Positions 2,343 through 16,649 of a stretch of 20,294 bases of DNA are shown here, piece after piece (positions within the stretch are counted from its first letter, which is position 1; each line of letters begins with the position of its first letter). Made by a program: the position numbers and the translations under genes. Source of the DNA: Nitrososphaerota archaeon. Lineage in GTDB: Archaea; Thermoproteota; Nitrososphaeria; Nitrososphaerales; UBA183. The stretch spans positions 1-20,294 of the forward strand of contig JAPCJN010000027.1 in the NCBI GenBank assembly GCA_027886925.1, read 5' to 3'. Under the pieces are notes generated by a model that worked only from the letters and a program-made list of their open reading frames with translations, did not search any database and was not told the origin of the DNA.

Positions 2343-3044
2343 CTACTTGGACGAGCTAGCGGTCCACAACAGCTCGAGGAACTGCATAAAGTGAATGGCG
2401 ACTGCGCTGCTCTCTGCCCATCCGCAGGCAGAGAGGTCCGGGAGACCTATCAGCGCAGTCTTGTCGTCGACGAGGAGGTCGAAGGCGACTATGTTCCCGG
2501 TTCTAGCTTCGACTCCTGCGAGAAGGTTCTTGGCGTCCACCTCATCCATGAGAATCCTGACCTTAACGCCGCGCGACACGGCGGCGCGGATCTCCTCGAG
2601 AAGAGGACCCGACCCCTCCAGCGTCCCTGAAGGACTCACGAGCATCATGTTGGAGCGTGCCCCCCGGATCATCTCCACGAGCTTCGAGAGGACCCTCTCC
2701 TTTCCGCGCAGCGTGTAGACGAGCTCCGCCTGCTCCGCTGGGGTCGCCATGTACATGGCCTCCAAAGACGCGAAGGTGACCTTGAGGCGTCCCTGGATTT
2801 CCTCGTAAATCGTGTTCGGCGCTCTTGCCCTGTAGACGGCAGGCCTCCGCCGGACCACCTCGACCCAGCCCAAGTCGTTGAGGCGTTTCAGCGCCTCGTA
2901 GGCGTTGGGATACGGCATTGACGCCTTGGATGCGACCTTCCTGGGATCGCTCGGCCCCAGCTCTACCAGGAAGACATAGCACCTCGCCTCATAGCCTGTG
3001 AGTCCTAGCTTTCTCAGCTCGCGCGAGAGTTCGTTTTCTTCCAT
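2343..3044 (-). CDS. TrmB-like transcriptional regulator
   Basis: 233 residues from ATG 3044. An upstream in-frame start at 3101 is unlikely because the TATA box (minus strand CTATATAA, about 3068-3075) would then lie inside the gene. From that box transcription should begin at about 3045, making ATG 3044 leaderless. The N-terminal part (about 5-75) is a winged helix-turn-helix of the TrmB type: ELRKLGLTGYEARCYVFLVE, then VASKASMPYPNAYEALKRL and a wing with VVRRRPAVYRA. The rest (about 100-225) resembles the TrmB C-terminal/PLD-like effector domain, with a stretch around GVKVRILMDEVDAKNLLAGV. TrmB proteins usually sense sugars or other metabolites; the ligand here is unknown. It is divergent from the GGR-family gene and shares its promoter region, so that operon and itself are the likely targets. 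Confidence 0.78.
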   Translation of the reverse strand: MEENELSRELRKLGLTGYEARCYVFLVELGPSDPRKVASKASMPYPNAYEALKRLNDLGWVEVVRRRPAVYRARAPNTIYEEIQGRLKVTFASLEAMYMATPAEQAELVYTLRGKERVLSKLVEMIRGARSNMMLVSPSGTLEGSGPLLEEIRAAVSRGVKVRILMDEVDAKNLLAGVEARTGNIVAFDLLVDDKTALIGLPDLSACGWAESSAVAIHFMQFLELLWTASSSK

Positions 3045-3066
3045 AGATGGCAAATATGCGGGAAGT

Positions 3067-3076
3067 CTTATATAGT
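3067..3076. promoter_or_regulatory. Shared, near-symmetric TATA element between regulator and GGR gene
   Basis: The plus strand reads CTTATATAG and the minus strand CTATATAAG, so the same bases give a good archaeal TATA box in both directions. On the minus strand it sits about 26 bp before ATG 3044 (leaderless). On the plus strand it would start RNA at about 3098, ahead of GGTG (3106-3109) and the TTG at 3115. A short palindrome, CCATAGATGG at 3041-3050, covers the regulator start and could be an autoregulatory site. Confidence 0.6.
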
Positions 3077-3114
3077 TATTAGTAGTCTTCGCAACTAACA
3101 ATTCTGGTGCGAAT

Positions 3115-4587
3115 TTGGTAGAATACGACTACGACGTGATAATCGCGGGAGGCGGCATGTCCGGCCTTCTCACAGCCTCGGCCATAGGGTCCTACTCCAA
3201 GGGGAGTGCGAGGGTCCTCGTGGTGGACAGGAACACTCCCGACGAGCCCGGGAAGAAGACGAACAACGGCTGGATCTGCGGCGACGCAGCGAGCAAGAAG
3301 AGCATCCAATTCATCGAGAAGAACATCGGGATCAAATACGATTACCCTGAACTCGAGCATCCCGTCAAGGGCATCTACGTCTATTCTCCCGACCACAAGA
3401 CGAAGGTGCTCTTCGAGGGCGAGGGTTTCATCCTCAACCGGAAGCTCATCCCTCGGAAGCAGGTGGCAGACGCCAAGGCGTTCGGCGTCGAGTTCAAGTT
3501 CGGCACGACAGCAGAAAAGCTCCTCGCCGAGGACGGCTACATCAGGGGGGTGGCCGGGCGAGACTCTGACGGCAACCCATTCAAGGCGACCGCGAAGATG
3601 GTCGTAGACTCGTCGGGCTCATCGTCAGTGCTCAGGAAGTTCTCCCCCATAGAGAGCTACATCGAAAGAGAGATCGATCCTGACGACATGGAGGCGACCG
3701 GCAGGTACCTCCTCGAGTTCGACCAAGGCGTCGAGGACGAGACCTACTTCACTCCTGAATACTGCCTCATCCATCTGGACCAGGTCATAGCTCCCGCTGG
3801 ATATGCCTGGGTGTTCCCCAAAGGGAAGAACAAGGTGAACATCGGCCTCGGCGTTTCAAAGTCCGGTCTCGACAGGAGGAACAAGAAGTTCGGGATGAAC
3901 GACAACCTCTCGACGCTCATCGACAAGTACGTCAACGACAACCCTTGCATCAAGAACAAGAGGCTCTCGACCAACCCGGACGACCAGGGGAACGCCAAGG
4001 GCAATTGGCAGGTCCCCGTGCGCAGGCAGAACGACTGCATGGTGGCCAACGGGTTCGCGTGCGTGGGCGACGCCGCGTGGCTGCCGAGGCCGCTGGACGC
4101 GGGCGGGATCGGGCCCTCCATGTATGCGAGCGTGATCCTCGGCAAGGTCGTCGCGCACGCGCTCGAGGCCAACGACGTGAGCCAGGAAGGGCTGTGGCCA
4201 TACAACCACGAGTACATGATGACCCACGGCTACCAGATGGCGTCATTCGAGGTCCTCAGGAGATACCTGCAGACGATCACCAACGAGCAGATCGATTTCG
4301 GGATGAAGCACTTCCTCACCGAGGAGGACATCAACGCCATCACAGAAAGGCGGCATCCGAGGTTCAAATCCATCCAGATGCTCAACCCAGTCCTCTTGAT
4401 GAGGGTGGCGAGCCAGATGGACCTTGCGAAGGGGCTGCGCTACACCGCAGACAAGAGCGAGGCGCTGGTAGAGCTCAACCAAAAGTACCCGGAGACTCCG
4501 AAGGGCTTCCCCGAGTGGAAGAAGCAGATCGTAAAGGAGATAGACGAGACCAAGACCCGCTTCAGCATGTCTGAAGCGGCAGCGTAA
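3115..4587 (+). CDS. Geranylgeranyl reductase family FAD flavoprotein
   Basis: 490 residues from TTG 3115. The first ATG would remove part of the FAD loop, and GGTG at 3106-3109 acts as a ribosome site five bases upstream. Residues 7-20 form the dinucleotide-binding strand and loop (VIIAGGGMSG). A second FAD motif, VGDAA, is at 317-321, followed by RPLDAGGIGPSM. The family's middle motif APAGYAWVFPKG is present. Archaeal members of this family saturate the geranylgeranyl chains of ether lipids, using ferredoxin or F420-type donors; relatives act on quinone side chains or pass electrons (FixC-like). The length is somewhat above the usual 390-450. The zinc-peptidase gene follows 21 bases downstream, so the two are probably one transcript. 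The polyprenyl synthase beyond the nuo genes suggests an isoprenoid theme. The exact substrate is not determined. Confidence 0.82.
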   Translation: MVEYDYDVIIAGGGMSGLLTASAIGSYSKGSARVLVVDRNTPDEPGKKTNNGWICGDAASKKSIQFIEKNIGIKYDYPELEHPVKGIYVYSPDHKTKVLFEGEGFILNRKLIPRKQVADAKAFGVEFKFGTTAEKLLAEDGYIRGVAGRDSDGNPFKATAKMVVDSSGSSSVLRKFSPIESYIEREIDPDDMEATGRYLLEFDQGVEDETYFTPEYCLIHLDQVIAPAGYAWVFPKGKNKVNIGLGVSKSGLDRRNKKFGMNDNLSTLIDKYVNDNPCIKNKRLSTNPDDQGNAKGNWQVPVRRQNDCMVANGFACVGDAAWLPRPLDAGGIGPSMYASVILGKVVAHALEANDVSQEGLWPYNHEYMMTHGYQMASFEVLRRYLQTITNEQIDFGMKHFLTEEDINAITERRHPRFKSIQMLNPVLLMRVASQMDLAKGLRYTADKSEALVELNQKYPETPKGFPEWKKQIVKEIDETKTRFSMSEAAA

Positions 4588-4608
4588 TAAGCCCGGTTCA
4601 CTTCATCG

Positions 4609-6276
4609 GTGGTCGCGCAATTGGTCTCAAAACCCCTCGACGACGAGATCGTCCAGCTCTGGAAGGAGCTGAGCCCTTCAGGCGCGTATACCGGTGGGTT
4701 CGAGGAATACGCGGGGAAGCTCTTCATACCGAGCGAGGAGAACATCAAGACAGCGCTGGAGAAGGTGAGGGCCCTGAGGAGGAGGACACAGAACGACCTG
4801 CAGGCGAAGGTCTTGGACAGCATCGAGGTGTCGCTCTCGTTCGACGAGCCGCAGCCCGTCCTCGACGAGATCGTCGGCTCCATCTTCAACCACCTCACGA
4901 AGGAGGGCGTTAACGAGGAGCACCTCTCCACGCTCATCTCTGACGCGATCAAGGCGATAGACGTCACGCAGAAGCGGTTCAGCAAGAAGACGGTGCCATC
5001 CGCGGTCAAGGCGCTGACGCTCTACAGGCTTGACGGGATTATAGAGATACTAGACGCGATAGAGAAACGGATCAAGGGCAAGGAGCTGAAGAAAGACTGC
5101 GAGAGGCTCAAGGAGCGCGCCAGGAAGTTCGTCTCCCTCTTCCAGCTCGAGGGGTTCGGGAAGGGGACTTTCGAAGAGGTCGAGAAGGTCTTCCAAAAGG
5201 CCAAGTTCGACCTTGGCAGGGAAAAGTTCTACCGGGTAGCCCTCGAGAACGGGATGGACTACTCGGAGACGCCGGAAGAGCTGGAGGAAAAGGCCCTTCA
5301 GTGGCTGAAGGACGAACTCCCTCGCTACAAGGACGTGACCAAGCGGCTCGCGAAAGAGTACAAGTGCAAGCCCACGCCGGAGGACGTCGAAAAGCACCTC
5401 GTCGACAGGACCCGGCTGAAGCCGAAAGACCTCCTGAGGGTGACCAACGCGATGAGGAAGGTCGTCCAAGAGTTCGTCAACGAAGACGTCGTGAAGATCA
5501 ACAAGAAATACAAGACGAAGGTCATCGAGACGCCCCCATACCTTTCCGGCATGCTACCTACAGGCGCGGCATCGTTCTTCGACACGTTCACCAAGAAGCC
5601 CTTCCAGCTTTACTTCCTGACGACCGACCCGAAGAGGGATCCTCCAAAGTCCGTCGCCCAGCTCATCGACCTGCTTGTCCACGAGGAGTATGGGCACTGC
5701 GTCAACCACTCGAACAGCGTCCTCCGTTTCGGCGGGCGCGCGAGCAGGTTGGAGCTCGTCGCCACCCTGCTCCAAGGTCCAATAACGGAGGGCCTCTCCT
5801 TCAACAGGGAGAGAGAGTTCCTTGAGGCGTCGATGAAGCTCGAGGGGAAGAAGTCGCTGACCAAGGCGGAGAAGGCCTACGTGGCCCAGCTCGAGAAGCA
5901 CGGCGGGCTTCGACTCGTCAACGCAGAGCTCGAATTCGAGACGAGGAAGTGGAGGCTCATCAGGTTCCTGAGGGTGATAGGAGACGTCCGCATCAACACC
6001 AACAAGCAGACCCTCTTCGAGTTCATAGACTGGGCGCACGCGAAGACCGGGGTGCCGAGGAGCAACGTCTACTACCAGCTCTTCCCGGCGCACGAGGGGA
6101 TGTTCCCAGGGTACGCGACCGCGTATGCGGTCGTGGGTGAGGAGATCCACGCCATCGAGGACACCATCCTCGACGACAAGGACCGGGTGAAGTTCTCAAC
6201 CTACTTGACCGGAGTGGGATTCCCTCCCCGGAGCCAATACAGGAAGATGCTGCAGGAATTCGCGGCGGCCCTGTAG
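4609..6276 (+). CDS. DUF885-like gluzincin metallopeptidase with HExxGH zinc motif
   Basis: 555 residues from GTG 4609; TTG 4621 is a possible alternative. No signal peptide or membrane segment is visible, so it is probably cytoplasmic. The N-terminal two thirds are helical and charged. The zinc site is HEEYGH at 358-363, with a likely third ligand Glu394 in GPITEGLSFNRE. A later block, PGYATAYAVVGEEI (from P500), resembles the conserved C-terminal helix of DUF885 carboxypeptidase-like enzymes. DUF885 proteins normally show HExxPGH and M3/M32 enzymes HExxH; here there are three residues between HE and H, as in dipeptidyl peptidase III (HExxGH). Family placement is therefore inference from the surrounding blocks. 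It probably cleaves peptides. It follows the GGR-family gene by 21 bases and precedes nuoH by 125. Confidence 0.65.
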   Translation: MVAQLVSKPLDDEIVQLWKELSPSGAYTGGFEEYAGKLFIPSEENIKTALEKVRALRRRTQNDLQAKVLDSIEVSLSFDEPQPVLDEIVGSIFNHLTKEGVNEEHLSTLISDAIKAIDVTQKRFSKKTVPSAVKALTLYRLDGIIEILDAIEKRIKGKELKKDCERLKERARKFVSLFQLEGFGKGTFEEVEKVFQKAKFDLGREKFYRVALENGMDYSETPEELEEKALQWLKDELPRYKDVTKRLAKEYKCKPTPEDVEKHLVDRTRLKPKDLLRVTNAMRKVVQEFVNEDVVKINKKYKTKVIETPPYLSGMLPTGAASFFDTFTKKPFQLYFLTTDPKRDPPKSVAQLIDLLVHEEYGHCVNHSNSVLRFGGRASRLELVATLLQGPITEGLSFNREREFLEASMKLEGKKSLTKAEKAYVAQLEKHGGLRLVNAELEFETRKWRLIRFLRVIGDVRINTNKQTLFEFIDWAHAKTGVPRSNVYYQLFPAHEGMFPGYATAYAVVGEEIHAIEDTILDDKDRVKFSTYLTGVGFPPRSQYRKMLQEFAAAL

Positions 6277-6401: not shown

Positions 6402-7598
6402 GTGCCCAAGCAGATAACCACCTTCGAGGATTTCGTACGCCACATCCTCAAACTGGTTTTCTGGGTCGTCCTGCTGACCCCCCTTTTCATCCTCCCGATC
6501 TACTACGTGTTCTACACTCTCTTCGGGGTCAGCTTCGTGGACTTCTTCGCCCTCTCGACAAAGCCCCAGCAGCTCATAGCGATGTTCATGTCGCTTACCA
6601 CGACGGAGCCCACGAAGACCTTCTTCGAGCTCTCCACCTTCCCGGGCTTCACGTTCGCGGCCCTGTTTTCCACTGTTTTCATGATATGGGTCGAGCGCAA
6701 GTTCATCGCGAAGGTCCAGCTGCGCGTCGGGCCCCAATACGCAGGAAGGTTCGAGGGGATATTCCAGAACTTCGCCGACCTCTTCAAGCTCCTCTTCAAG
6801 GAGATAATCGTTCCAAACCAGGTGGACAAGGCGATCTTCCTCTCCGTCCCGCTGGCCCTGATGTTCATCGCAGGCTCGCTCCTGGCGCTCCTCCCGCTAG
6901 GCCCTGGCACCGTCATCGCTGACCCGCCTATCGGGGCCATCCTCGTCTTCGCGATAGTGAGCTTCACGCCTCTGGTCGTGATGCTGGCTGGGTGGGCGAG
7001 CAACAACAAGTACTCTCTGCTCGGCTCCCTGAGGGCGCTTCACCAGATGGTCGCCTACGAGATCCCGATGATCCTCTCCGTGCTCGGGATCGTCGTCCTC
7101 TCGGGCTCCCTCGACCTCGTCAAAGTTGTCTACGCGCAGAGCAGCGTCTGGTTCATCGTCCTCCAGCCGCTCGGGGCGATCACGTTCTTCGTCTGCGTCC
7201 TCGCGGAGCTTGAACGCATCCCCTTCGACCTCCCGGAGGCGGACTCCGAGCTGGTCGCCGGCTGGCAGACGGAATACTCGGGGATGACTTTCGGGCTGTT
7301 CCAGTTCGCGACCTACATCAAGTTCTATGCGCTGTCGGGCATATTCACGACTTTCTTCCTCGGAGGCTGGTATGGGCCGGGGGTTCTACCTCCTGAAGCA
7401 TGGTTCGTCATCAAGACCTTCTTCGTGATGCTCGCAATGATGGTCCCCCGTGCGGTCATGCCGAGGATAAGGATAGACGCCCTCCTAAGGGGAGGATGGA
7501 CCAAGCTGATGGCTCTTTCCTTCCTCAACCTTTTCATCGCGCTCCTCATAGTGGCGCTCGGCCTCTACCAGATCGGCGCCGTCGTCGGAGGGACATAG
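6402..7598 (+). CDS. nuoH: Complex I membrane subunit NuoH (ND1-like)
   Basis: 398 residues from GTG 6402; no other start lies in frame nearby. NuoH forms the quinone chamber together with the peripheral arm. Diagnostic blocks are VERKFIAKVQLRVGPQYAG, then ADLFKLLFKE, QMVAYEIPM, ERIPFDLPEADSELVAGWQT with TEYSGM, and RIRIDALLRGGW near the C-terminus. The family is usually about 320-350 residues. The excess here is an N-terminal extension of about 60-70 residues with at least one additional membrane segment (about 16-42) before the canonical first helix. It is the first gene of the H-I-J-K-M-L-M-N operon; nuoI begins two bases after its stop. The genes nuoA-D, which normally precede H, are absent. 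Confidence 0.95.
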   Translation: MPKQITTFEDFVRHILKLVFWVVLLTPLFILPIYYVFYTLFGVSFVDFFALSTKPQQLIAMFMSLTTTEPTKTFFELSTFPGFTFAALFSTVFMIWVERKFIAKVQLRVGPQYAGRFEGIFQNFADLFKLLFKEIIVPNQVDKAIFLSVPLALMFIAGSLLALLPLGPGTVIADPPIGAILVFAIVSFTPLVVMLAGWASNNKYSLLGSLRALHQMVAYEIPMILSVLGIVVLSGSLDLVKVVYAQSSVWFIVLQPLGAITFFVCVLAELERIPFDLPEADSELVAGWQTEYSGMTFGLFQFATYIKFYALSGIFTTFFLGGWYGPGVLPPEAWFVIKTFFVMLAMMVPRAVMPRIRIDALLRGGWTKLMALSFLNLFIALLIVALGLYQIGAVVGGT

Positions 7599-7600
7599 GC

Positions 7601-8113
7601 ATGGGGACTCTCTCGAGCATCAAGGGCGCCTGGATCGCGACCTGGTCCGGCATACGGCACGCGTTCAAGCCGAGGATGACTCTCCGCTACCCAGACCAGA
7701 AGCTAGACCTCCAAGGCCCCGGGTACCATTTCGACCCCAGGAACGGCGTCGGTCTCCCCGGATTCAAGGGGAGGCACGTGCTGCGCGAAGACAAGTGCAC
7801 GGGATGCCAGCTATGCGCGATCGCCTGCGACGGCGTCGCCGTGGCCATCGAGATGCAGACCATGGTGAGGAACCGCCCGCAGAACAAGAAGAACTACTGG
7901 CCCGCGGTGGACTACGGCAGGTGCGTCTTCTGCGGGCTGTGCGTGGACGCATGTCCGTTCGACGCCCTCTCCATGACCAACGACTACGAGCTCTCGGCAT
8001 ATGACAAGGCCAGCCTGAAGTACACCCCCGACATGCTCATGATCCAACCGGCCGAGTACGGGAACGCCAAGGTCAAGTTCGACACCAAGAAGGGCGACGT
8101 CACCCATGGTTGA
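7601..8113 (+). CDS. nuoI: Complex I ferredoxin-like subunit NuoI (two 4Fe-4S clusters)
   Basis: 170 residues from ATG 7601, two bases after the nuoH stop; longer versions of this frame run through nuoH and are not credible. Two cluster motifs are visible: CTGCQLCAIAC and CVFCGLCVDACP, each C-x2-C-x2-C-x3-C. Only the second has the usual proline after the last cysteine. NuoI carries clusters N6a and N6b, which pass electrons from the peripheral arm towards N2 in NuoB and the quinone. A C-terminal tail of about 45 residues follows the second motif. The stop overlaps the nuoJ start (ATG 8106), so the two are likely translationally coupled. Confidence 0.95.
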   Translation: MGTLSSIKGAWIATWSGIRHAFKPRMTLRYPDQKLDLQGPGYHFDPRNGVGLPGFKGRHVLREDKCTGCQLCAIACDGVAVAIEMQTMVRNRPQNKKNYWPAVDYGRCVFCGLCVDACPFDALSMTNDYELSAYDKASLKYTPDMLMIQPAEYGNAKVKFDTKKGDVTHG

Positions 8114-8639
8114 CGCGACCGACGCGACGTTCATCGCGCTCTCGGTGGTCACGGTCGGCGGAGCGATCGCCGCGCTCGAGGCAAGGGAGGTGATTTACGG
8201 GGCCATCGGGCTCGCCGGGAGCTTCTTCGGCGTCGCGTCCCTGTTCTTCCTTCTCGACGCCGAGTTCGTGGCCGTCTTCCAGATCACGGTTTATGTGGGA
8301 GCCGTCGCCGTCCTCGTCCTTTTCACCGTCATGTTGGTGAGGGAAGGCCGGGGCGTCGGCAACTACACAGGACCCGCCGGGATCATCGCGTCGATGGTGA
8401 CGGTGCTGGCCCTGTTCGTCTCGCTCGCGTCGACCTTCTACGGGGGAGGCTTTTCGAGCTCGACCGAGCAGGGGGCCGCCCCGAGCTTCGTCGACATCGG
8501 GAAGCTCCTCAGCGGGCAGTTCGCCCCCGTTCTGGAGATACTCGCGCTCGTCCTCGCAGCGTCGGTGTTGGGGGCGCTGACTCTAGCGAAGGTGGAGCCG
8601 ACCGGGGATTCCCCCAGCAATGCAAGGGAGGAGCCTTAA
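8106..8639 (+). CDS. nuoJ: Complex I membrane subunit NuoJ (ND6-like)
   Basis: 177 residues with about five membrane helices, starting at ATG 8106 inside the end of nuoI. The ND6-type block AVFQITVYVGAVAVLVLFTVM (about 57-77) corresponds to the third helix with its pi-bulge. That helix links quinone chemistry to the central hydrophilic axis. A 20-residue polar loop (GGGFSSSTEQ and following) separates the last two helices. The length is ordinary for the family. nuoK begins six bases after its stop. Confidence 0.9.
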   Translation: MVDATDATFIALSVVTVGGAIAALEAREVIYGAIGLAGSFFGVASLFFLLDAEFVAVFQITVYVGAVAVLVLFTVMLVREGRGVGNYTGPAGIIASMVTVLALFVSLASTFYGGGFSSSTEQGAAPSFVDIGKLLSGQFAPVLEILALVLAASVLGALTLAKVEPTGDSPSNAREEP

Positions 8640-8645
8640 CGAGCA

Positions 8646-8954
8646 ATGGCGATAGCGCTCTCGGACTACCTCGTCGTCTCCGCGGTCCTCTTCGCCGTCG
8701 GGGTCTACGGCCTCGTAACAAAGAGAAACGCCATGAGGCTCGTCTTCTCGGTCGAGATACTCGTCAACGCGGCGACCATAAACTTCATCGCGTTCAACCG
8801 GTTCCTCTGGCCGGACGCGCTGGGACAGATGGCGGCGCTCTTCTCGATCGCGATAGCGGCGGGCGAAGCCGCCGTGATCCTTGCGATAATCGTCGTCGCC
8901 TACAGGATCCACGACAGCGTCGACGCGAGCGAACTGAAGAACCTAAAGGGGTAA
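8646..8954 (+). CDS. nuoK: Complex I membrane subunit NuoK (ND4L-like)
   Basis: 102 residues and three membrane helices, the normal size. The two conserved membrane glutamates of the E-channel are visible in VEILVNAATINF (helix 2) and IAAGEAAVILAIIV (helix 3). NuoK relays conformational or proton coupling from NuoJ/NuoH to the antiporter-like subunits. A 103-base gap, unusually wide for this operon, separates it from the first nuoM-type gene. Confidence 0.95.
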   Translation: MAIALSDYLVVSAVLFAVGVYGLVTKRNAMRLVFSVEILVNAATINFIAFNRFLWPDALGQMAALFSIAIAAGEAAVILAIIVVAYRIHDSVDASELKNLKG

Positions 8955-8962
8955 GCAGCGGT

Positions 8963-9064
8963 ATGCCAGAGACTCGAGTCCCGGGGCAGTTAGTGCGCGC
9001 GCTACAGCTCCACGACGACGATGACCGCTCGGCTCTGCGTGAAAGGGAGGGGATGACGTGCTGA
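8963..9064 (+). CDS. Possible small ORF between nuoK and nuoM1
   Basis: ATG 8963 opens a 33-codon frame, beginning MPETRVPGQLVRAL, that nearly fills the nuoK-nuoM1 gap and ends at TGA 9062-9064. Its end overlaps the nuoM1 GTG (9058) by seven bases, an arrangement seen in translational coupling. The peptide is hydrophilic with an acidic run (DDDD) and a Glu/Arg-rich end. I recognise no family, and codon quality is mediocre. It may simply be an untranslated spacer carrying the strong nuoM1 ribosome site, or a decayed remnant. Confidence 0.25.
   Translation: MPETRVPGQLVRALQLHDDDDRSALREREGMTC
9044..9060 (+). promoter_or_regulatory. Strong ribosome-binding site deciding the nuoM1 start
   Basis: AGGGAGGGGATGAC directly precedes GTG 9058. 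The GGAGG core matches the anti-Shine-Dalgarno end of 16S rRNA with good spacing. An in-frame stop at 9040-9042 excludes any earlier start. Confidence 0.65.
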
Positions 9065-10581
9065 CCGCGATACCTTTCGTCCTGCTGCAGGTCGTTATCG
9101 TCCCTCTCCTCGCCTCGCTGGTCACCTTCGCGGCGGCCGGGAGGCTGGGACGCCACGTCGGATGGATAGCGTTTGGCTCCTTCCTCTACGTCGCCCTCCT
9201 CCTGCTCACGGTCGGGGCGGGCCTCTACGACGGTGGACAGGGGGTCACTGAGACCTACACTTGGGCCCAGAGCGCAGGCCTGAGCTTCGGCTTCCTCGCA
9301 GACGACCTGAGCCTGCCCGTCGTCCTGGTGATCGCCATCGTCTGCGCCGCCGTCGCGGTCTATTCGATCCCCTACATGGAGCACAGGTTCGAGGCGCTCT
9401 ACGGGGGAGAGAGGAAGCAACAATACGGCGTCTACTACCTGAACTTCCAGCTTCTCGCCACGGGCGTCCTCGGAGTCGCCCTCTCGACGAACCTCATCGA
9501 GCTCTACCTTTTCACAGAGCTGATGCTGATCCCTTCCTTCTTCATCCTGAGCCTCTTCGGCTATTTCGACAGGGCAAGGATCGCCATAACGTACTTCATC
9601 TGGAACCAGCTTGGGGCGTTCGTCTTCCTCGTGGGGATACTCTTGGCATACGTCTCGACCGGGAGCTTCTCCATCTCCGCCCTATCGTCCCTGACAACCG
9701 GCGGCTCGTCGCTTCCATACTGGGTCTTCTTCCTGATAATGGCTGGCTGGTTCGTCAAGATGGGGGTCGTCGGACTCCACACCTGGCTCCCCTACTCGGA
9801 AGCCGAACCGCCTTCGTCGTTCGCGCCCGTGATGGCGACGGTCGTCGGGGTCGGCAACTACGTCTTCGCCCGGCTGCTGGTTCAGTACATGCCGACGATC
9901 TTCCAGGCTTTCAGCGTCCCCATCATGATCGTCGCTCTGCTGACGATGATATTCGGAGGCGCGATCACCCTCGTCCAGGACGACATCAAGTACCTGTTCG
10001 CCTGGTCGACGATGAGCCAGAACGCCTATTCGCTGCTGGGGATCGGGAGCCTGACCGTCCTCGGCGTCTCAGGCGGCGTCTTCTACTTCCTCAGCCACAT
10101 CATCGGGAAGTGCATCCTCTTCTCCATCGCTGGAATAATCCTGGTGCGGACCGGAACGCGAGACATGAGGCAGATGGGCGGGCTCGCCAGCAAGATGCCG
10201 CTGACAGCGAGCCTGTGCCTCATCGGGGCGCTCATCTTGTCGGCAGTCCCTCCGCTCAGCGGCTTCCAGGCCGAGTGGGTGATGTTCGTCGGGATATTCT
10301 ACCAGGGGGCATACGGCATGAACCTCAACCTCGTCATCGCACTGCTGGGGATGATCGCCACTCTCCTTACCGGCGCCTACACGTTCTGGCCGGTCAAGAG
10401 GATATTCTTCGGGACACTCCCTTCCCACCTCGAGTCCGTCACGGAGGCTCCCCTCATGATGACCCTTCCCCTCATCGCGCTCGCCGCCATCTCCATACTG
10501 ATCGGCATCTACCCCGACCTGGTCGCGAAGATGCTCATCGGCTTCGCAAACAGCCTCCCCGCTCTGAAGGGAGGGCTCTAG
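9058..10581 (+). CDS. nuoM: First NuoM-like antiporter subunit (extra pump, M1)
   Basis: 507 residues from GTG 9058, with about 14 membrane helices. This is a proton-pumping antiporter-like subunit in an unusual place, between nuoK and nuoL. Key residues are Glu154 in helix 5 (FTELMLIPSFF), Lys234 in helix 7 (FVKMGVVGLHTWLP), Lys351 in SHIIGKCILF, and Glu406 in helix 12 (LSGFQAEWVMF). The helix-12 Glu is typical of NuoM, whereas the helix-10 Lys is typical of NuoL, NuoN and MrpD. The usual helix-8 Lys of NuoM (LLKxxGYG) is absent: here the block reads MATVVGVGNYVFA. After LHTWLP the usual DAHxEAP is replaced by YSEAEPP. This copy is divergent and could also be called NuoM/MrpD-like. Its stop abuts the nuoL ATG. 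Confidence 0.88.
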   Translation: MLTAIPFVLLQVVIVPLLASLVTFAAAGRLGRHVGWIAFGSFLYVALLLLTVGAGLYDGGQGVTETYTWAQSAGLSFGFLADDLSLPVVLVIAIVCAAVAVYSIPYMEHRFEALYGGERKQQYGVYYLNFQLLATGVLGVALSTNLIELYLFTELMLIPSFFILSLFGYFDRARIAITYFIWNQLGAFVFLVGILLAYVSTGSFSISALSSLTTGGSSLPYWVFFLIMAGWFVKMGVVGLHTWLPYSEAEPPSSFAPVMATVVGVGNYVFARLLVQYMPTIFQAFSVPIMIVALLTMIFGGAITLVQDDIKYLFAWSTMSQNAYSLLGIGSLTVLGVSGGVFYFLSHIIGKCILFSIAGIILVRTGTRDMRQMGGLASKMPLTASLCLIGALILSAVPPLSGFQAEWVMFVGIFYQGAYGMNLNLVIALLGMIATLLTGAYTFWPVKRIFFGTLPSHLESVTEAPLMMTLPLIALAAISILIGIYPDLVAKMLIGFANSLPALKGGL

Positions 10582-12735
10582 ATGGCAGCGACAGCTTCGC
10601 TCCCCTCCATATACCTCTGGCTCGTCGTGATCTTCCCGTTCGCGGGCGCCCTGCTGACCCCGCTCCTCGCGAAGGCCGGGAAGAAGGTCAGGGACTACGG
10701 CGCCGTCCTGTTCTCCGGCCTCTCAGCGCTCTTCGCCGTGCTCCTGCTGATCCCGGTGCTCCAGGGAGACTCGATCTCCATCTACAACTCCGTGATCCCG
10801 ACCAGCGTCCCGTGGATCTCTGAGCTGGGGATCGACATGGGCGTCCTCTACGACCCATACACGATCATCATCGTCAACGTCATCGCGCTCGTGAGCCTGC
10901 TGATCATGGTCTACAGCCTGGACTACATGAAGGGCGAGCGCGGCCTCACGCGCTACTGGTTCTTCATGACCCTCTTCCTGGGGAACATGCAACTCATCGT
11001 CCTCTCGAACAATCTCCTGGTCCTCTACGTCGGGTGGGAGGGCGTGGGCCTTTGCAGCTACGCCCTGATAGGCTTCCACTACGACGATGACCCTGGCTCT
11101 TGGGTGGGGACGCCCGGCGAGAAAGCCCTCGGCCTCGAGCAGGCCTATTCCCCGTCACACGCCGGGATGAAGGCCTTCCTGATGACGAAGGTGGGCGACA
11201 TGGCGATGCTCATCGGGATCTTCATCGTCTTCATCTACGGGGGGACCTTCAGCTTCCAGTCGCTCGCCGCCAACAACGCGTGGGCGACCTCGCTCGCGAA
11301 CGCGGGACTGCTCGTGCCCACGGCGCTCCTGCTTTTCGGGGGCGCGATAGGCAAGTCCGCCCAGTTCCCTCTCCAGGAGTGGCTCCCCGACGCGATGGCC
11401 GGTCCCGCCCCCGTCTCCGCTTTGATCCACGCAGCGACGATGGTGAACGCGGGCGTGATCCTCGTCGCGAGGATCGCCCCGATCTTCTACTTCGCGCTCG
11501 AGGCCAACCCGGCGCTCATCCAGCCCTTCTTCCTCACCGTCGCGTGGATAGGCGCCTTCACTGCGTTCCTCGCCGCGACCCAGGGCATGGTGGGGTTCGA
11601 GCTGAAGAAGATCCTCGCCTACTCGACCGCGTCCCAGATAGGGTACATGATCATGGCCCTCGGAATCACGGGCCTCTCATCCGACTTTACGCAAGGGCTC
11701 TCCGCCGGGCTTTTCCACTTGATGAGCCAAGCCATCTTCAAGGCATGCCTGTTCATGGCCGCCGGCGTCCTCATTCATGTGACGGGCACGAAATACGTCA
11801 ACGGAATGGGCGGCCTCAGGACCAAGATGAAGCTCACGTTCGCCGTCTTCCTCATCGCGGCCGCGTCCTTGTCGGGCATACCTCCCTTCAGCGGGTTCTG
11901 GAGCAAAGACGCGGTCCTCACGACGGCCTGGGATGCGGGGCAGCTCGGCCTCTTCGCCGTCGGGGCGATAACAGCGGGGTTGACCGCCTTCTACACGTTC
12001 AGGATGTTCGGGCTCATCTTCTACGGGAAGGAGGAGGAGAAGGAGGGCGACCATCCCCCAGAGGGGCACCAGCCGCACGAGACCGGCCCCCTCGGGTGGG
12101 TCCCATACGCGATCCTCGGGGTGGCGACGGTCGTCATAGGGCTGCTCGCCCCGCTCCTCAACATCGAGGGGGCGCTCCAGGGCGCGGCGACGACCTACGT
12201 GCTGGGGCTCTTCCCCAACGCCGTCCTCCCGAGCGTCCCACCGGCGTTCTCTTTTGACGCAGTCCCTGCCGCGATAGCCCTGGCGTCGGTCTTGGCGGGG
12301 TCGGGTGCTGCCTACGTGATCTACATCGCCAGGAGGGTGGCGCCCTCCGCCATCGTGGGGGAGACGGGCTTCATGCACGGCCTCCATACCTTCCTTGTGA
12401 ACAGGTGGTATCTCAACGCGATCTATTACAAGGTCTTCGTCTACCCGCTAATCTCGTCGTCGCGTTGGCTGCTCGCCAACGTCGAGGTGAACGGGATCGA
12501 GCGGCTCAACTCCGCGACGGCGGCCCTCGGCGTCTACGTATCGAGGGCCGGGAACTGGATCGACTCCAGCGTGGTAGACGCCGTAGCCGTCGACGTCGCC
12601 ATCGACGGAGAGTCGATATCCCGCCTTCTGAGGAGGGTCCAGAACGGCGTCGTGGAGCGCTACGCCCTGATCTTCGCGATCGGCCTCGCCATGATCCTCG
12701 TGTTCTTCGTCTTTGCCGCAGGAGTCTTGGGTTAG
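10582..12735 (+). CDS. nuoL: Complex I antiporter subunit NuoL with extended lateral-helix region
   Basis: 717 residues from ATG 10582, directly after the nuoM1 stop. Key residues are Glu153 in helix 5 (YVGWEGVGLCSYALIGF), Lys258 in helix 7 (AIGKSAQFPLQEWLPDAM), Lys387 (AIFKACLF) and Lys442 (FWSKDAVL). The diagnostic HAATMV block is present. A polar loop rich in Glu and His lies near 481-500 (KEEEKEGDHPPEGH). After YYKVFVYP (615-622) come 68 residues before the last membrane helix starting VERYALIF (691). From memory, E. coli and alpha-proteobacterial NuoL have about 37-42 residues there, so this lateral-helix region is about 26-31 residues longer. NuoL sits distally and its lateral helix clamps the other pumps, so the extra length fits a fourth pump. 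Confidence 0.95.
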   Translation: MAATASLPSIYLWLVVIFPFAGALLTPLLAKAGKKVRDYGAVLFSGLSALFAVLLLIPVLQGDSISIYNSVIPTSVPWISELGIDMGVLYDPYTIIIVNVIALVSLLIMVYSLDYMKGERGLTRYWFFMTLFLGNMQLIVLSNNLLVLYVGWEGVGLCSYALIGFHYDDDPGSWVGTPGEKALGLEQAYSPSHAGMKAFLMTKVGDMAMLIGIFIVFIYGGTFSFQSLAANNAWATSLANAGLLVPTALLLFGGAIGKSAQFPLQEWLPDAMAGPAPVSALIHAATMVNAGVILVARIAPIFYFALEANPALIQPFFLTVAWIGAFTAFLAATQGMVGFELKKILAYSTASQIGYMIMALGITGLSSDFTQGLSAGLFHLMSQAIFKACLFMAAGVLIHVTGTKYVNGMGGLRTKMKLTFAVFLIAAASLSGIPPFSGFWSKDAVLTTAWDAGQLGLFAVGAITAGLTAFYTFRMFGLIFYGKEEEKEGDHPPEGHQPHETGPLGWVPYAILGVATVVIGLLAPLLNIEGALQGAATTYVLGLFPNAVLPSVPPAFSFDAVPAAIALASVLAGSGAAYVIYIARRVAPSAIVGETGFMHGLHTFLVNRWYLNAIYYKVFVYPLISSSRWLLANVEVNGIERLNSATAALGVYVSRAGNWIDSSVVDAVAVDVAIDGESISRLLRRVQNGVVERYALIFAIGLAMILVFFVFAAGVLG

Positions 12736-12738
12736 CGC

Positions 12739-14256
12739 ATGGTGAGCTTCACCCTCTCGCTGCTCATATTCCTGCCCCTCGCCGGCAGCGCCGTCACCTA
12801 CGCCGCGTCAAGCCTCGGCGGCGGGAGGAAGGTAGCTATCTACTCGGCCGTCGCGTTTTCGGTCGCGACCCTCCTGGTCTCGGGCTATGCGTTCTGGTCC
12901 GTCTACTCGAACACGCCGCCGCTCGGCCAGTACGCCCTGACGGAGAGCCACACGTGGATCGCGCTGCCGGGGTTCACCCTGCAGTTCCTGCTCGGGGTCG
13001 ATGGGCTGAGCGCCCCTCTAATCTTGGTCTCCTCGATCCTCGCCGTCCTTGCGATCGTGAGCTCAAAGGCCCTGATAGACAAGAACGAGCCGGCCTACTA
13101 TGCCCTGCTGCTCTTCGTGGAAGGGTCGATAATGGGCGCCTTCGCCTCTCTCAACCTTGTCGTCTTCTACGTCTTCTGGGAGCTGACCCTCATCCCGATC
13201 TTCTTCCTCATCGGGGTGTGGGGCGGGGACCGGAGGAAATACGCCGCGATGAAGTTCATCATCTTTACTTTCGCGGGCAGCGCGATAATGCTCCTCGGCT
13301 TCCTCGCGCTCTATCTGGGTGTCTCCCCCACGACGTTCGACATCCCTGACCTGGCCGGGAAGATCCCCGCAGGGCTCCAGTACCTTCCGCTCCTCGCCGT
13401 CTTCGTCGGGTTCGCCGTAGAGCTCCCCATCTTCCCCTTCCACAGCTGGCAGCCCGACGCCTACGAGCAAGCCCCCGCTCCCGTCAACGTGCTGTTGTCG
13501 GGCGTGCTCCCAAAGTTCGCCGGCTACGGGGTCATCCGCATCGGGATAGCACTCTTCCCTCAGGCGGCGTACCAGTACGCCTGGGCCTTCATCGCGGTCG
13601 CGATCGTCTCAATGTTCTACGGGGCGGTGGTCGCCCTTCTGCAAAACGACCTCAAGCGGATGTTCGCATACACGAGCATAAACCACATGGGGTTCGTCCT
13701 CTTCGGCGCCTTCGCCGCGGTCGCCTCGGGGAACCCGCTCGGGATCCAAGGCGCCATACTCCTGATGTTCACGCACGCGCTCTCCGTCGGCGCCCTCTTC
13801 ACGCTATCGGGGTTCATCGAGGTCCAGGCTGGGACTAGGAAGATTTCCCTCCTGGGCGGGTTGACGCAACGGATGCCTCGAACCGCGGCCCTCCTCGCGC
13901 TCGCGAGCGCCGCGGCCATCGGCATCCCTCCCTTCGCCAGCTTTCTGGCGGAGCTGCTGGTCATCTCGGCGGGAATCTCCGCTTATTCCTACACCGCGAT
14001 AACGGTCCTAGTCCCGGTGATCACGGGCGCCTACTTCCTTTGGATGCTCAAGAGGACGGTCTTCGACTCGCCGGCGGCGCAGGCGCCTGAAGGCGGAGTG
14101 CAGGCCCGTGACATCTCGAGGGCCGACGCCGGGGTGATAGTCCTCTACCTGGTGCCGTTGGTCCTCTTGACGGTCTTCTCGTTCCTGGTCCTTTCTCCCG
14201 CGGCGCCTGTGGCCCAGTGGACAGTCCACCTCGCGGCAGGAGGCGCGCACGCATGA
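12739..14256 (+). CDS. nuoM: Second NuoM antiporter subunit (M2)
   Basis: 505 residues from ATG 12739, in the standard L-M-N position. Key residues are Glu148 in helix 5 (FWELTLIPIFFLIGVWG), Lys259 in helix 8 (LLSGVLPKFAGYG) and Glu405 in helix 12 (FASFLAELLVIS). At the helix-7 position, where NuoM normally has Lys in an IKMP- or VKxP-type block before FHTW, this protein reads AVELPIFPFHSWQPDAYE, that is, Glu228. Apart from that it is the more orthodox NuoM, with HALSVGALF in helix 10. Three bases separate it from nuoL, and its stop overlaps the nuoN start as ATGA. Confidence 0.92.
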   Translation: MVSFTLSLLIFLPLAGSAVTYAASSLGGGRKVAIYSAVAFSVATLLVSGYAFWSVYSNTPPLGQYALTESHTWIALPGFTLQFLLGVDGLSAPLILVSSILAVLAIVSSKALIDKNEPAYYALLLFVEGSIMGAFASLNLVVFYVFWELTLIPIFFLIGVWGGDRRKYAAMKFIIFTFAGSAIMLLGFLALYLGVSPTTFDIPDLAGKIPAGLQYLPLLAVFVGFAVELPIFPFHSWQPDAYEQAPAPVNVLLSGVLPKFAGYGVIRIGIALFPQAAYQYAWAFIAVAIVSMFYGAVVALLQNDLKRMFAYTSINHMGFVLFGAFAAVASGNPLGIQGAILLMFTHALSVGALFTLSGFIEVQAGTRKISLLGGLTQRMPRTAALLALASAAAIGIPPFASFLAELLVISAGISAYSYTAITVLVPVITGAYFLWMLKRTVFDSPAAQAPEGGVQARDISRADAGVIVLYLVPLVLLTVFSFLVLSPAAPVAQWTVHLAAGGAHA

Positions 14257-15761
14257 CTCCTGACTACATCCTGATTGCCGTAGTAGCGCTCTCGTTCCCC
14301 GCTCTCGGGCTGCCGTTCCTGGGGCTGTCCGGCAAACGAGGGAACCTTCCCGGGTACTTGCTGGTCCTCGCCCTCCTCGTGGCCCTCGCATCCATCATCA
14401 TGAACGCGGCCTCAGGAAACCCGGGCTCTCCGTCGTTCGGCACCCTGCTGTCCTCCGACTCGCTCGGCGACCTGTTCGCAATGTTGACGTTGTTCGTCAC
14501 AATATTCGTGGCTGTTGCCTCCCTGACGCTCGTTTCTTTCCGCGGGGCCGCCACGACGAATTCCCCCTTCTACTATTCGCTACTCTCGTTCGCCGCGCTC
14601 GGGATGCTGCTGGTCTCGTACTCGGCAGACCTCCTCATGCTCTTCGTAGCGTGGGAACTCATGAGCATCCCGACCTATGCTCTAGCCGGGTTCCAGAAGG
14701 GCAGGGAAGAGTCGAACGAGGCCGCGGTGAAATACGCGGTCATCGGCGCGCTCTCGTCGGCGATCATACTCTATGCGATAAGCCTGACCTACGGACTCAC
14801 GGGGACCACCGAAATAGCCATCGCTGCAAAGTCCCTGGGTGCGCAGCTGTTCAACCCGGCCGCAGGCTTGGCCGTCCTCCTCTTCGTCGTCGGGTTCGGC
14901 TTCAAGATGTCTGTGGTCCCGTTCCACATGTGGGCGCCAGACGCCTACGAGGGTGCCCCGACCCCCATCGCGACGCTGTTCGCCGCCGGGACGAAGAAGG
15001 TAGGCTTCGTCGCCGCCATCAGGGTCGTCCTCGCCATCTCCACCGTCTACGCGATAACGCCTCAGGGTAGCCTCTTCACCATCCCCAACGTCCTTGCTGC
15101 GCTGGCGGTGTCGACGATGACGCTCGGCAACCTCGCCGCACTGACCCAGAAGAGCATCACTCGCCTGCTCGCCTATTCGAGCATAGCGCAGGTGGGCTAC
15201 ATCCTCATAGGCTTCGTGATCTACTCTTACGCACAGGGGAACTCGGCCTTCGCGCAGGAGGGAGTGCTCGGGATGACCGGAGCGCTCTTCCACATAGTCA
15301 ACCATTCGGTGATGAAGGGCGCCGCCTTTTTGGGCGCGGGCCTCATCATCCTGAAGCTGGGCACCGGAGACATCGCGGCTCTCAACGGTTTGGGGCGGCG
15401 CATGCCCGTCACGGCGTTCACGATGACGATCTCGTTCCTCGCGCTCGCTGGGATCCCGCCTCTGAGTGGCTTTTGGAGCAAGCTCCTCCTCTTCACTTCG
15501 GTCCTCAACGGGCCTTACGCTTGGCTAGCGGTGGCGGGCGTCGTGAACAGCGCCGTGAGCATGGGGTACTACGGCTGGATGGTGAAGCGCATGTACATGG
15601 ACGACCCCCCCGCCGCAGGCGATACGGCTCGCGTCATTGAGCCGACCTCGTTCGTCGTCGTCCTCGGGGTGCTGGTCGCGTTGATCGTGGCCTTCGGGGT
15701 CTTCCCTGGGCCTGTGATCTCGTTCGCCCAGAACTCGGTGCCTGCGCTGGCTGGGCCTTAG
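14253..15761 (+). CDS. nuoN: Complex I antiporter subunit NuoN (ND2-like)
   Basis: 502 residues from ATG 14253; the ATGA overlap with nuoM2 favours this over an upstream GTG at 14217. Key residues are Glu135 in helix 5 (FVAWELMSIPTYALAGF), Lys218 in helix 7 (GFKMSVVPFHMWAPDAYEG), the paired lysines of AAGTKKVGF in helix 8, Lys in NHSVMKGAAF, and Lys in SGFWSKLLLF (helix 12). NuoN is the antiporter-like subunit closest to the NuoK/J/A block. It is the last gene of the operon, and its stop is three bases from the convergent polyprenyl synthase stop. No separate terminator is visible in that gap. Confidence 0.95.
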   Translation: MTPDYILIAVVALSFPALGLPFLGLSGKRGNLPGYLLVLALLVALASIIMNAASGNPGSPSFGTLLSSDSLGDLFAMLTLFVTIFVAVASLTLVSFRGAATTNSPFYYSLLSFAALGMLLVSYSADLLMLFVAWELMSIPTYALAGFQKGREESNEAAVKYAVIGALSSAIILYAISLTYGLTGTTEIAIAAKSLGAQLFNPAAGLAVLLFVVGFGFKMSVVPFHMWAPDAYEGAPTPIATLFAAGTKKVGFVAAIRVVLAISTVYAITPQGSLFTIPNVLAALAVSTMTLGNLAALTQKSITRLLAYSSIAQVGYILIGFVIYSYAQGNSAFAQEGVLGMTGALFHIVNHSVMKGAAFLGAGLIILKLGTGDIAALNGLGRRMPVTAFTMTISFLALAGIPPLSGFWSKLLLFTSVLNGPYAWLAVAGVVNSAVSMGYYGWMVKRMYMDDPPAAGDTARVIEPTSFVVVLGVLVALIVAFGVFPGPVISFAQNSVPALAGP

Positions 15762-15764
15762 CCC

Positions 15765-16649
15765 CTAAAAGTCCCGCTTCACCGAAAAGTCCGTCAGCTC
15801 CCTCAGGAGCGAGGTGGCCGAGTTGTCTTCGAGCAGAGAGAGCAGCTCCTTCGCCTTCATTGCGTAAGCGTCCGTCATGGACTGCAGGCGGGCCAGAAGC
15901 ATGCTCTCGTCTCCCTTGCGCTTCAACGCCGCGGTTATCTTGTCCTCGTTGCCCCAGTCGAGCATGTCGTCGTGAATCTGGTACGCGATGCCCAGGTTTC
16001 TTCCGTACTCCGTGAGCGCCTCCAGCTTTTCCGCCGACGCCCCGCCCGCCAAGCCGCCTAGCCTGACCGCCGCCTCGAAGAGCGCCGCGGTCTTCTTCGA
16101 GATCACTTCGAGATACTCATCCCAGTCGAGCTTGTAGATCTCCGGGTCGATGGTGAGCTCCGCGTACTCGCCCTCGCACATGTTCATCGCCGCGTTGCTT
16201 ATCGTGGTCGCGACCCTCTTGTCTTTGTATCTTGCCGCGATCGCGAGTATCATCGCGAAGACAAAGTCCGCCGTCAGGAGAGAGGTGCTGTAGCCGTACC
16301 TCACGTGGAAGGCCGCCCGCCCTCTCCTCGACGCCTCCTGGTCGATGATGTCGTCGTGGATGATCGACTCGGCGTGCAGGAGCTCCACCGCCACGGCGGC
16401 GTCGAGCACCTTTTCGTCGTCTTCGCAACCTACGGACTCCGCGGCGAGGAGGAGCGCGAGAGGTCTTATCCGCTTCCCTCCCTCTAGCGCATATTTCAGA
16501 GGTCCATGAAAGCGCGAGTCTGAATATCTGCTAAGCTCTCTATCGATGGCGCCGTCGATCTTCTCGACATAACGCTTCGTCTGAACCTCTATTCTGTCGA
16601 GAAACTCCAGGTCTTTATTCGCCAAAAGTCCGGGACCGGTGCATTTCAA
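15765..16649 (-). CDS. Polyprenyl (probably geranylgeranyl/farnesyl-type) diphosphate synthase
   Basis: 294 residues from TTG 16649, or 286 from TTG 16625. The TATA element at 16661-16670 predicts RNA start near 16639, which favours the shorter form. Visible motifs are GGKRIRP (57-63), the first aspartate-rich motif HDDIIDQ (DD at 99-100), the second in QIHDDMLDW, and paired Gln/Lys regions between them. The enzyme condenses isopentenyl diphosphate with allylic diphosphates. Products of this family feed archaeal ether lipids and quinone tails; chain length cannot be set from sequence alone. It converges on nuoN with a three-base gap. With the GGR-family gene upstream of nuoH, it brackets the complex I genes with isoprenoid functions. 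Confidence 0.9.
   Translation of the reverse strand: MKCTGPGLLANKDLEFLDRIEVQTKRYVEKIDGAIDRELSRYSDSRFHGPLKYALEGGKRIRPLALLLAAESVGCEDDEKVLDAAVAVELLHAESIIHDDIIDQEASRRGRAAFHVRYGYSTSLLTADFVFAMILAIAARYKDKRVATTISNAAMNMCEGEYAELTIDPEIYKLDWDEYLEVISKKTAALFEAAVRLGGLAGGASAEKLEALTEYGRNLGIAYQIHDDMLDWGNEDKITAALKRKGDESMLLARLQSMTDAYAMKAKELLSLLEDNSATSLLRELTDFSVKRDF

What the first reader, a model, noticed from the sequence alone, without database searches (positions are those of the whole stretch)
6402..15761. Complex I membrane arm with four pump subunits and a lengthened NuoL lateral-helix region
Seen: gene order H-I-J-K-M1-L-M2-N with two NuoM-type proteins, and 68 residues between YYKVFVYP and the last helix of NuoL. 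From memory, ordinary NuoL proteins have about 37-42 residues there. Known: modified complex I cassettes with a fourth pump and an enlarged lateral helix have been described in bacteria and on environmental archaeal fosmids. Inference: this operon encodes such an enzyme, possibly translocating more protons per electron pair or working reversibly at small redox spans. With no nuoEFG nearby, the donor may be ferredoxin or F420H2.
Basis: partly seen in the sequence, partly recalled or inferred. Interest (0 to 1): 0.8.

Follow-up and report, generated by a model that had tools for sequence, protein, structure and literature searches.

The report
Four-pump complex I, altered fourth pump
A soil archaeon carries a known kind of enlarged respiratory complex I with four pump subunits instead of three, but its added pump has lost an amino acid that related pumps need to work and another pump appears to have been exchanged with methanogen-type relatives, so this enzyme may not pump the extra proton usually assumed.

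Summary
In detail: nuoH-I-J-K-M1-L-M2-N lies at 6402-15761, with two NuoM-type subunits and 71 residues in the NuoL lateral-helix region between landmarks, against 41 in E. coli and 42-46 in 34 of 39 archaeal rows with three pumps on the stretch. This is a 2M-type complex I, reported before in marine heterotrophic Thaumarchaeota (PMC7300363); the window probably belongs to acid-soil Gagatemarchaeaceae or kin. Two findings bear on 'more protons'. (1) In M2, the bacterial-type NuoM, the TM7 ion-pair lysine (E. coli K234) is glutamate (E228, GAG 13420-13422). Of 120 listed homologues, 40 (ranks 2-41) share it and 80 have lysine; other key residues stay. A related clade separately lost the TM8 lysine. 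TM7-lysine mutants of NuoM/ND4 lose activity (PMC3046159, PMC9802314). (2) M1 groups with the NuoM of Methanomethylicia-type complexes (100/100), while L and N do not; AU tests reject a common history: one pump subunit was exchanged between lineages. No nuoA-D hit lies in the window; NuoF and FrhB_FdhB_C families matched in 0 of 11 relative genomes. Verdict: new variant of a known kind.

The parts
6402..7598 (+). nuoH (398 aa), with about 84 residues before the Pfam NADHdh match begins
   Evidence: PF00146, 3.2e-101, residues 85-380
7601..8113 (+). nuoI (170 aa from ATG 7601), intein-free here
8106..8639 (+). nuoJ
   Evidence: PF00499, 1.8e-25
8646..8954 (+). nuoK
   Evidence: PF00420, 1.5e-25
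9058..10581 (+). M1: archaeal-type NuoM, grouping with Methanomethylicia-type NuoM; ion pair E154/K234, TM11 K351 and TM12 E406 present; G at the TM8 lysine place, as (G or A) in the sampled archaeal M1 rows
10582..12735 (+). nuoL (717 aa) with lengthened lateral helix
12418..12630 (+). lateral-helix region of NuoL between the landmarks NRWYLN and RRVQNG (residues 613-683, 71 residues; 25-30 more than in E. coli and most three-pump rows)
12739..14256 (+). M2: bacterial-type NuoM, the added pump subunit
13420..13422 (+). GAG codon for M2 residue E228, at the place of the TM7 ion-pair lysine (E. coli NuoM K234)
13513..13515 (+). AAG codon for M2 residue K259, the retained TM8 lysine (E. coli NuoM K265)
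14253..15761 (+). nuoN; start overlaps the end of M2; E135, K218, a TM8 lysine and K410 present
3115..6276 (+). upstream neighbours: geranylgeranyl-reductase-like gene and DUF885-like gene (below Pfam's cut-off); same two genes before nuoH in L001, L004, L016, L022

Best explanation
The operon encodes the membrane arm (with NuoI) of a 2M-type complex I of a Nitrososphaeria archaeon. It probably assembles as a four-antiporter arm strapped by a lateral helix about one subunit longer; nuoABCD must lie elsewhere. NuoL, M1 and NuoN keep charged residues of a proton-moving antiporter subunit. M1 was exchanged between this lineage and Methanomethylicia-type complexes (direction open). The added subunit M2 has a fixed Lys-to-Glu change in its TM7 gating ion pair, so it most likely no longer pumps by the standard ion-pair mechanism: it acts as a coupled, non-pumping or re-wired spacer, and the enzyme moves no more protons per electron pair than a three-pump enzyme. 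Shown from sequence: gene content, lengthened helix region, tree conflict of M1, the fixed K-to-E, a separate TM8 loss in a related clade. Inferred: assembly of all four, and what M2 does.
For: Gene content. Lateral helix: 71 residues against 42-46 in 34 of 39 rows with three pumps on the stretch; predicted helices 610-665 and 675-687 before the last TM in the window, 640-675 and 677-692 in the three-pump control L039. M1: 13 window-lineage plus 6 Methanomethylicia-type rows one clade at 100/100; a Nitrososphaeria-only M1 clade is 265 lnL worse, p-AU 1e-37; the same union is rejected for L (p 0.0007) and N (p 2e-42). Identity of the window to L152 (Methanomethylicia-type) and to L025 (marine four-pump): M1 53 and 40%, L 40 and 48%, N 34 and 44%. 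M2 TM7: E in the window and in 40 of 120 listed homologues (ranks 2-41), K in the other 80; K in 86 of 86 M1 rows and 58 of 61 M2/NuoM rows. TM8 K-to-A clade of 11 rows, separate origin, 100/99. In Paracoccus ND4 the Glu-Lys pair is essential and active variants stay coupled (PMC9802314, abstract and passages); E. coli K234 mutants lost function (PMC3046159, passages).
Against: M2 is otherwise well kept in the E228 clade (E148, H235, K259, H316, H346 41 of 41; E405 39 of 41), which suits a working rather than an idle subunit. If all modules work in series, a dead M2 should stall the enzyme, so re-wiring is as natural as loss. TM7 lysine is not universal in NuoN-type rows (T in 17 of 20 KN rows, E or D in 16 of 19 'other' rows), and E. 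coli NuoN K217A kept proton pumping (PMC13073174). The highest-scoring listed M2 homologue, P0121 (64% identity, 710 aa, internal repeat), has K. The lateral helix is predicted with low confidence (block pLDDT 36-56). A long helix does not prove a fourth pump: 5 of 39 three-pump rows have 72 residues, and 8 rows without an M1, among them bacterial L056 and L057, have 70-122. No complex was modelled.
Confidence: 0.45

Rival explanations
1. Ordinary 2M complex I: all four antiporter subunits pump, M2 uses E228 as a protonatable group in place of the lysine, and the enzyme moves one extra proton per two electrons, as hypothesised for other 2M enzymes.
For: Other key residues of M2 are kept in 41 of 41 (E405 in 39 of 41) rows; the operon and lateral helix match the 2M plan; the strict coupling of known enzymes (PMC9802314) suggests that a retained subunit is functional.
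Against: The TM7 Glu-Lys pair was found essential in NuoM/ND4 (PMC3046159; PMC9802314); a second sub-lineage lost the TM8 lysine of M2, which suggests relaxed demand on M2, though TM8 mutants are only partly impaired.
Confidence: 0.33
2. The M2 change is an acid-habitat adjustment (a reason for the change, compatible with the best explanation): with a large pH gradient a fifth proton would make the reaction unfavourable, so the added pump was tuned down while the arm kept its length.
For: The relatives L003, L016 and L037 come from soils of pH 5.0, 4.2 and 4.9 (PMC10640624 passages); both lysine losses are in this lineage (14 of 18 M2 rows) and in 0 of 24 M2 rows of my other archaeal four-pump groups.
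Against: Four of 18 window-lineage M2 rows keep both lysines (L003, L004, L021, L024), and L003 is from an acidic subsoil. The habitat of the window and of most relatives was not looked up; no comparison with pH was run.
Confidence: 0.15
3. M2 is not part of the same enzyme: a three-pump complex (M1, L, N) is made, and M2 is a leftover.
For: Three-pump relatives use just M1, L and N; long lateral helices occur with three pumps on the stretch (5 of 39 rows).
Against: M2 is present in 23 of 25 window-lineage loci, the other two (L017, L037) being cut off before it; in the E228 clade it is conserved at 66-87% identity with intact other key residues; the helix is longer in all 42 readable rows with four pump genes.
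Confidence: 0.05

Closest known systems
2M complex I, clade 2 (Chadwick et al. 2018; heterotrophic marine Thaumarchaeota, PMC7300363)
   Same: Second NuoM in the cassette, longer lateral helix, no EFG reported, order K-M1-L-M2-N; M2 of the window and of marine rows (L025, L030, L048, read as this group from their record titles) lie in one clade.
   Different: nuoABCD are not adjacent in the window lineage; M1 belongs to another NuoM lineage; M2 lacks the TM7 lysine, which is K in 7 of 7 rows of my HMT-like group.
   Same: NuoM before nuoL is of the M1 group; L and N group with the window's.
   Different: No M2 on the stretch, short lateral helix.
   Same: Its NuoM and the window-lineage M1 form one clade, 100/100.
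   Different: Three pumps on the stretch, other gene order, short lateral helix; L and N lie elsewhere in the trees.
Complex_I_3 of Candidatus Manganitrophaceae and the rhizobial green complex I (PMC9040806 passages)
   Same: Extra antiporter-like subunits; a 26-residue helix insertion in the first of the two.
   Different: Their extra or replacing subunits include MrpD-like ones; here both M1 and M2 are NuoM-like.

Membership tests
2M complex I (Chadwick et al. 2018, definition taken from citing papers and recall) | A second NuoM gene in the complex I cassette | tested here: met
   M1 and M2 in one clade with E. coli NuoM, 99/98
2M complex I (Chadwick et al. 2018, definition taken from citing papers and recall) | NuoL lateral-helix insertion of about 26 residues (length as told in PMC9040806) | tested here: met
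   71 residues against 41 in E. coli
2M complex I (Chadwick et al. 2018, definition taken from citing papers and recall) | Clade 2 placement with the marine heterotrophic Thaumarchaeota | tested here: inconclusive
   M2 of 42 four-pump rows one clade, support 1.0; L and N fit; M1 does not. The clade 2 label is from PMC7300363; the defining paper was not held.
2M complex I (Chadwick et al. 2018, definition taken from citing papers and recall) | Fourth subunit pumps an additional proton (a hypothesis, not strictly a defining feature) | not testable with these tools
   The TM7 lysine of M2 is missing, which argues against it
F420H2 dehydrogenase (Fpo) | FpoF-type F420-oxidising subunit | tested here: inconclusive
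   PF04432 in 0 of 11 relative genomes, which are drafts; the window's own genome is not held
NADH:quinone oxidoreductase with NuoEFG | NuoF 51 kDa subunit | tested here: inconclusive
   PF01512 in 0 of 11 relative genomes, which are drafts; not among the 20 window ORFs scanned; own genome not held
Mrp antiporter | Pump subunits grouping with MrpA or MrpD | tested here: not met
   M1 with all six Mrp-type rows rejected, p 7e-8; with MrpA-type p 1e-5, with MrpD-type p 0.053 (not quite rejected); M1 with NuoM 99/98. The Mrp rows were named by me from gene lengths and neighbourhood.

The most novel reading that the evidence does not exclude
In a whole clade of soil archaea the added antiporter subunit of a four-pump complex I has been turned, by one fixed charge-reversing change in its gating ion pair, into a module that passes the coupling signal without pumping (a natural gear-down), next to a pump subunit exchanged with methanogen-type relatives; complex I arms would then be modular, with subunits swappable and individually switchable without stalling the enzyme.
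Probability: 0.28. Interest if true: 0.8.

Novelty: new variant of a known kind. Interest (0 to 1): 0.6.

Why it matters
Whether every antiporter-like subunit of complex I must pump, and whether four-pump enzymes really move an extra proton, are open questions. A natural enzyme in which an otherwise intact added subunit carries a substitution at a residue found essential in NuoM/ND4, shared by the 41 sequences of its clade found here, with another core lysine lost in a related clade, gives a direct test: the clades with K, with E at TM7 and with A at TM8 are ready-made variants. The exchange of one pump subunit between distant lineages would show that the arm is more modular than its tight coupling suggests.

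Tried and rejected
Rejected: M1 as a stand-alone Mrp-type subunit (the MrpD-type pairing is only nearly rejected). Rejected: M2 as a pseudogene or sequencing error, because 41 sequences from several sources share E228 and keep the other key residues. Rejected: shared descent of the window-lineage M1 with the other Nitrososphaeria M1. Not decided: whether three-pump clusters of the A-B-C-D-H-I-J-K-M-L-N kind lost M2 and the insertion; all four-pump rows as one clade is not rejected for L (p 0.058) or N (p 0.213). Not decided: direction of the M1 exchange (window-lineage rows as one clade p 0.151). Weakened: a long lateral helix as proof of a fourth pump. L122, L123, L131, L133, L136 have 72 residues with three pumps on the stretch; PF00361 matches in their genomes G105, G214, G082, G177, G036 were 3, 3, 5 (two of these in one frame), 4 (one on another contig, 292-residue frame) and 5, so a distant fourth pump is possible in three of the five. 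Looked for a compensating basic residue between TM5 and TM7 in the E228 clade, at columns whose charge frequency differs by more than half: none seen. The fold search only confirmed the NuoL fold. The defining 2M paper was not held, so its content is taken from citing papers and recall. No complex of several subunits was modelled. A search for inteins with NuoI (10 of 38 papers listed) and one for Gagatemarchaeaceae or Nitrososphaeria with 2M/NuoM terms (15 of 39 listed) showed no title that describes these findings.
Full report
Observation. The window carries nuoH-I-J-K-M1-L-M2-N on the + strand at 6402-15761. nuoABCD gave no hit in the window. Upstream lie a geranylgeranyl-reductase-like and a weakly DUF885-like gene, shared by L001, L004, L016 and L022. 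None of 25 window-lineage loci shows an A-D hit, though several are cut at or before nuoH. In G003 nuoD lies about 55 kb from nuoL on the same contig, in G001 on another contig. L025, L030, L048 and L050 have ABCD directly before H.

Who it is. The nearest relatives by NuoL are Thaumarchaeota or unclassified archaeal MAGs. PMC10640624 (passages) counts palsa-1368 (L002) in Gagatemarchaeaceae and lists AcS1-27 (L016) and AcS4-109 (L037) under Gagatemarchaeum; SubAcS15-15 (L003) stands in the same table, its heading outside the passage that I saw. A find for 'Nuo' in that paper gave no occurrence. The window's own genome is not held, so the placement is an inference from its nuo proteins.

Lateral helix. 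On an alignment of 131 NuoL rows (125 distinct) the count between fixed landmarks was 71 in 49 rows and 41-48 in 66; 16 rows lie elsewhere. Of the 49, 41 have all four pump genes on the fetched stretch and 8 do not (L002, L017, L024, L027, L033, L034, L040, L042; short or cut loci). Rows with all four number 43: 41 have 71, L147 has 72, L021 has a broken frame. Rows with M1, L and N but no M2 on the stretch number 39: 34 have 42-46 and 5 have 72 (L122, L123, L131, L133, L136). Eight rows without an M1 have 70-122, among them the bacterial L056 and L057; L119 has 17. So the insertion goes with the fourth pump in these archaea but does not prove it; PMC9040806 reports insertions without extra pumps too (passages). 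AlphaFold2 models show helices 610-665 and 675-687 in the window and 640-675 and 677-692 in three-pump L039, with low confidence in the helix. Foldseek finds NuoL-type chains of solved complex I.

What M1 and M2 are. In a FastTree of 405 pump rows, M2 of 42 four-pump rows is one clade (support 1.0), joined with bacterial NuoM and 10 M2-like rows of other archaeal loci, while M1 groups with the NuoM of three-pump archaea. With six Mrp-type rows added, M1 and M2/NuoM form one clade at 99/98; M1 with all Mrp rows is rejected (p 7e-8), with MrpA-type too (p 1e-5), with MrpD-type only nearly (p 0.053). I take M2, between L and N, as the added subunit.

The M1 conflict. In careful trees (LG+C20+F+G4, PMSF) 13 window-lineage M1 rows and 6 Methanomethylicia-type rows form one clade at 100/100 on a branch of 1.12. 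Holding all Nitrososphaeria M1 together costs 265 lnL units (p-AU 1e-37); holding the Methanomethylicia-type with the other K-N-L-M rows costs 273 (p 8e-70). For NuoL (13 rows) and NuoN (11 rows) the window lineage is its own clade (100/100 each), and joining it with the Methanomethylicia-type rows is rejected (p 0.0007 and 2e-42). Pairwise identities agree. The groups were chosen after a first tree, so the p values are not those of a test named beforehand, but the differences are large. Direction is open (p 0.151). Long branches are flagged in these trees.

Key residues. Mapped on E. coli NuoM and NuoL, M1 has E154, K234, K351 and E406 in 120 of 120 listed near homologues and H347 in 117, with G (115) or A (5) at the TM8 lysine, as in the archaeal M1 rows. 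The window's NuoL has E153, D206, K258, K442 (Q383 in place of a histidine), NuoN E135, K218, K249, K410. M2 has E148, K259, H316, H346 and E405 but E228 at the TM7 lysine. Of the 120 M2 homologues listed (of 2631 found), ranks 2-41 have E at TM7 and the 79 lower ranks have K; rank 1, P0121, a 710-residue protein with an internal repeat and 64% identity, has K. In the loci, 3 of 18 window-lineage M2 rows have E at TM7, 11 have A at TM8 and 4 keep both; 24 of 24 rows of my other archaeal four-pump groups keep both. A careful M2 tree of 65 rows puts 18 E rows and 11 A rows in two separate clades (100/99 each) nested among rows with both lysines.

How it probably works. In the picture of PMC9271201 (abstract and passages) each antiporter subunit has a Glu/Asp-Lys ion pair, a central lysine and a distal residue, and opening of the pair is tied to proton transfer. 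In Paracoccus ND4 the pair and the distal Glu are essential, while TM8-lysine variants keep part of the activity, and active variants still pump four protons (PMC9802314, abstract and passages). K234 mutants of E. coli NuoM lost function (PMC3046159, passages). With two acidic residues at its place, M2 cannot form that pair. Since the subunit is kept, it most likely serves as a length- and coupling-preserving spacer or uses a re-wired path, so the extra-proton inference is doubtful for this enzyme while the 2M architecture stands. The variability of TM7 in NuoN-type rows and the kept pumping of E. coli NuoN K217A (PMC13073174, passages) leave room for a working M2.

Donor. NuoF (PF01512) and FrhB_FdhB_C (PF04432) matched in 0 of 11 window-lineage genomes each; these are drafts. 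Ferredoxin or another carrier is possible; nothing here decides it.

Known or new. The 2M plan is known; marine heterotrophic Thaumarchaeota are said to have clade 2 of it (PMC7300363, passages). In the searches, which cover open-licence papers only and were seen mostly as listings, I saw no report of the M2 lysine loss or the M1 exchange.

Noticed in passing
L001:4853-7576, L003:5476-7635, L004:4125-6068, and NuoI of L005, L006, L009, L011, L013, L015, L017, L018, L022, L029, L037, L047: NuoI of relatives carries inteins inside the second 4Fe-4S motif, at two sites (before the first and before the last cysteine of CVFCGLC). 14 of 17 window-lineage NuoI rows have at least one (4 have both), as has three-pump L047; the window, L008 and L016 have none. 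Pfam on 6 of these rows finds intein splicing, Hint or LAGLIDADG domains.
   Followed up: partly
L122, L123, L131, L133, L136 (NuoL C-termini): K-N-L-M clusters with three pumps on the stretch but a 72-residue lateral-helix region; by eye the extra stretch looks like a tandem copy of a helix unit of about 27 residues, so longer helices may have arisen more than once.
   Followed up: partly
L005 and L011 (one MAG, YP3.bin16); L014 and L020 (FK2_bin.173): Two four-pump complex I loci in one MAG: two genomes mixed in a bin, or two enzymes in one cell (two nuoD of this type in G005).
   Followed up: no
NuoN-type rows of L058-L071 and other 'other' loci; K-N-L-M loci: The TM7 lysine of NuoN-type subunits is E or D in 16 of 19 'other' rows and T in 17 of 20 K-N-L-M rows, so it is less fixed in NuoN than in NuoM.
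   Followed up: no
L147: A different four-pump cluster, order M-M-L...K-N, with a 72-residue NuoL helix region, possibly another independent origin.
   Followed up: no
window 15765-16649 (-), 2343-3101 (-), 19365-19817 (+): Polyprenyl synthetase, TrmB-type regulator and a short carbonic-anhydrase-like gene around the operon.
   Followed up: no
P0121: A 710-residue M2 homologue that appears to repeat an internal stretch; assembly error or real duplication.
   Followed up: no
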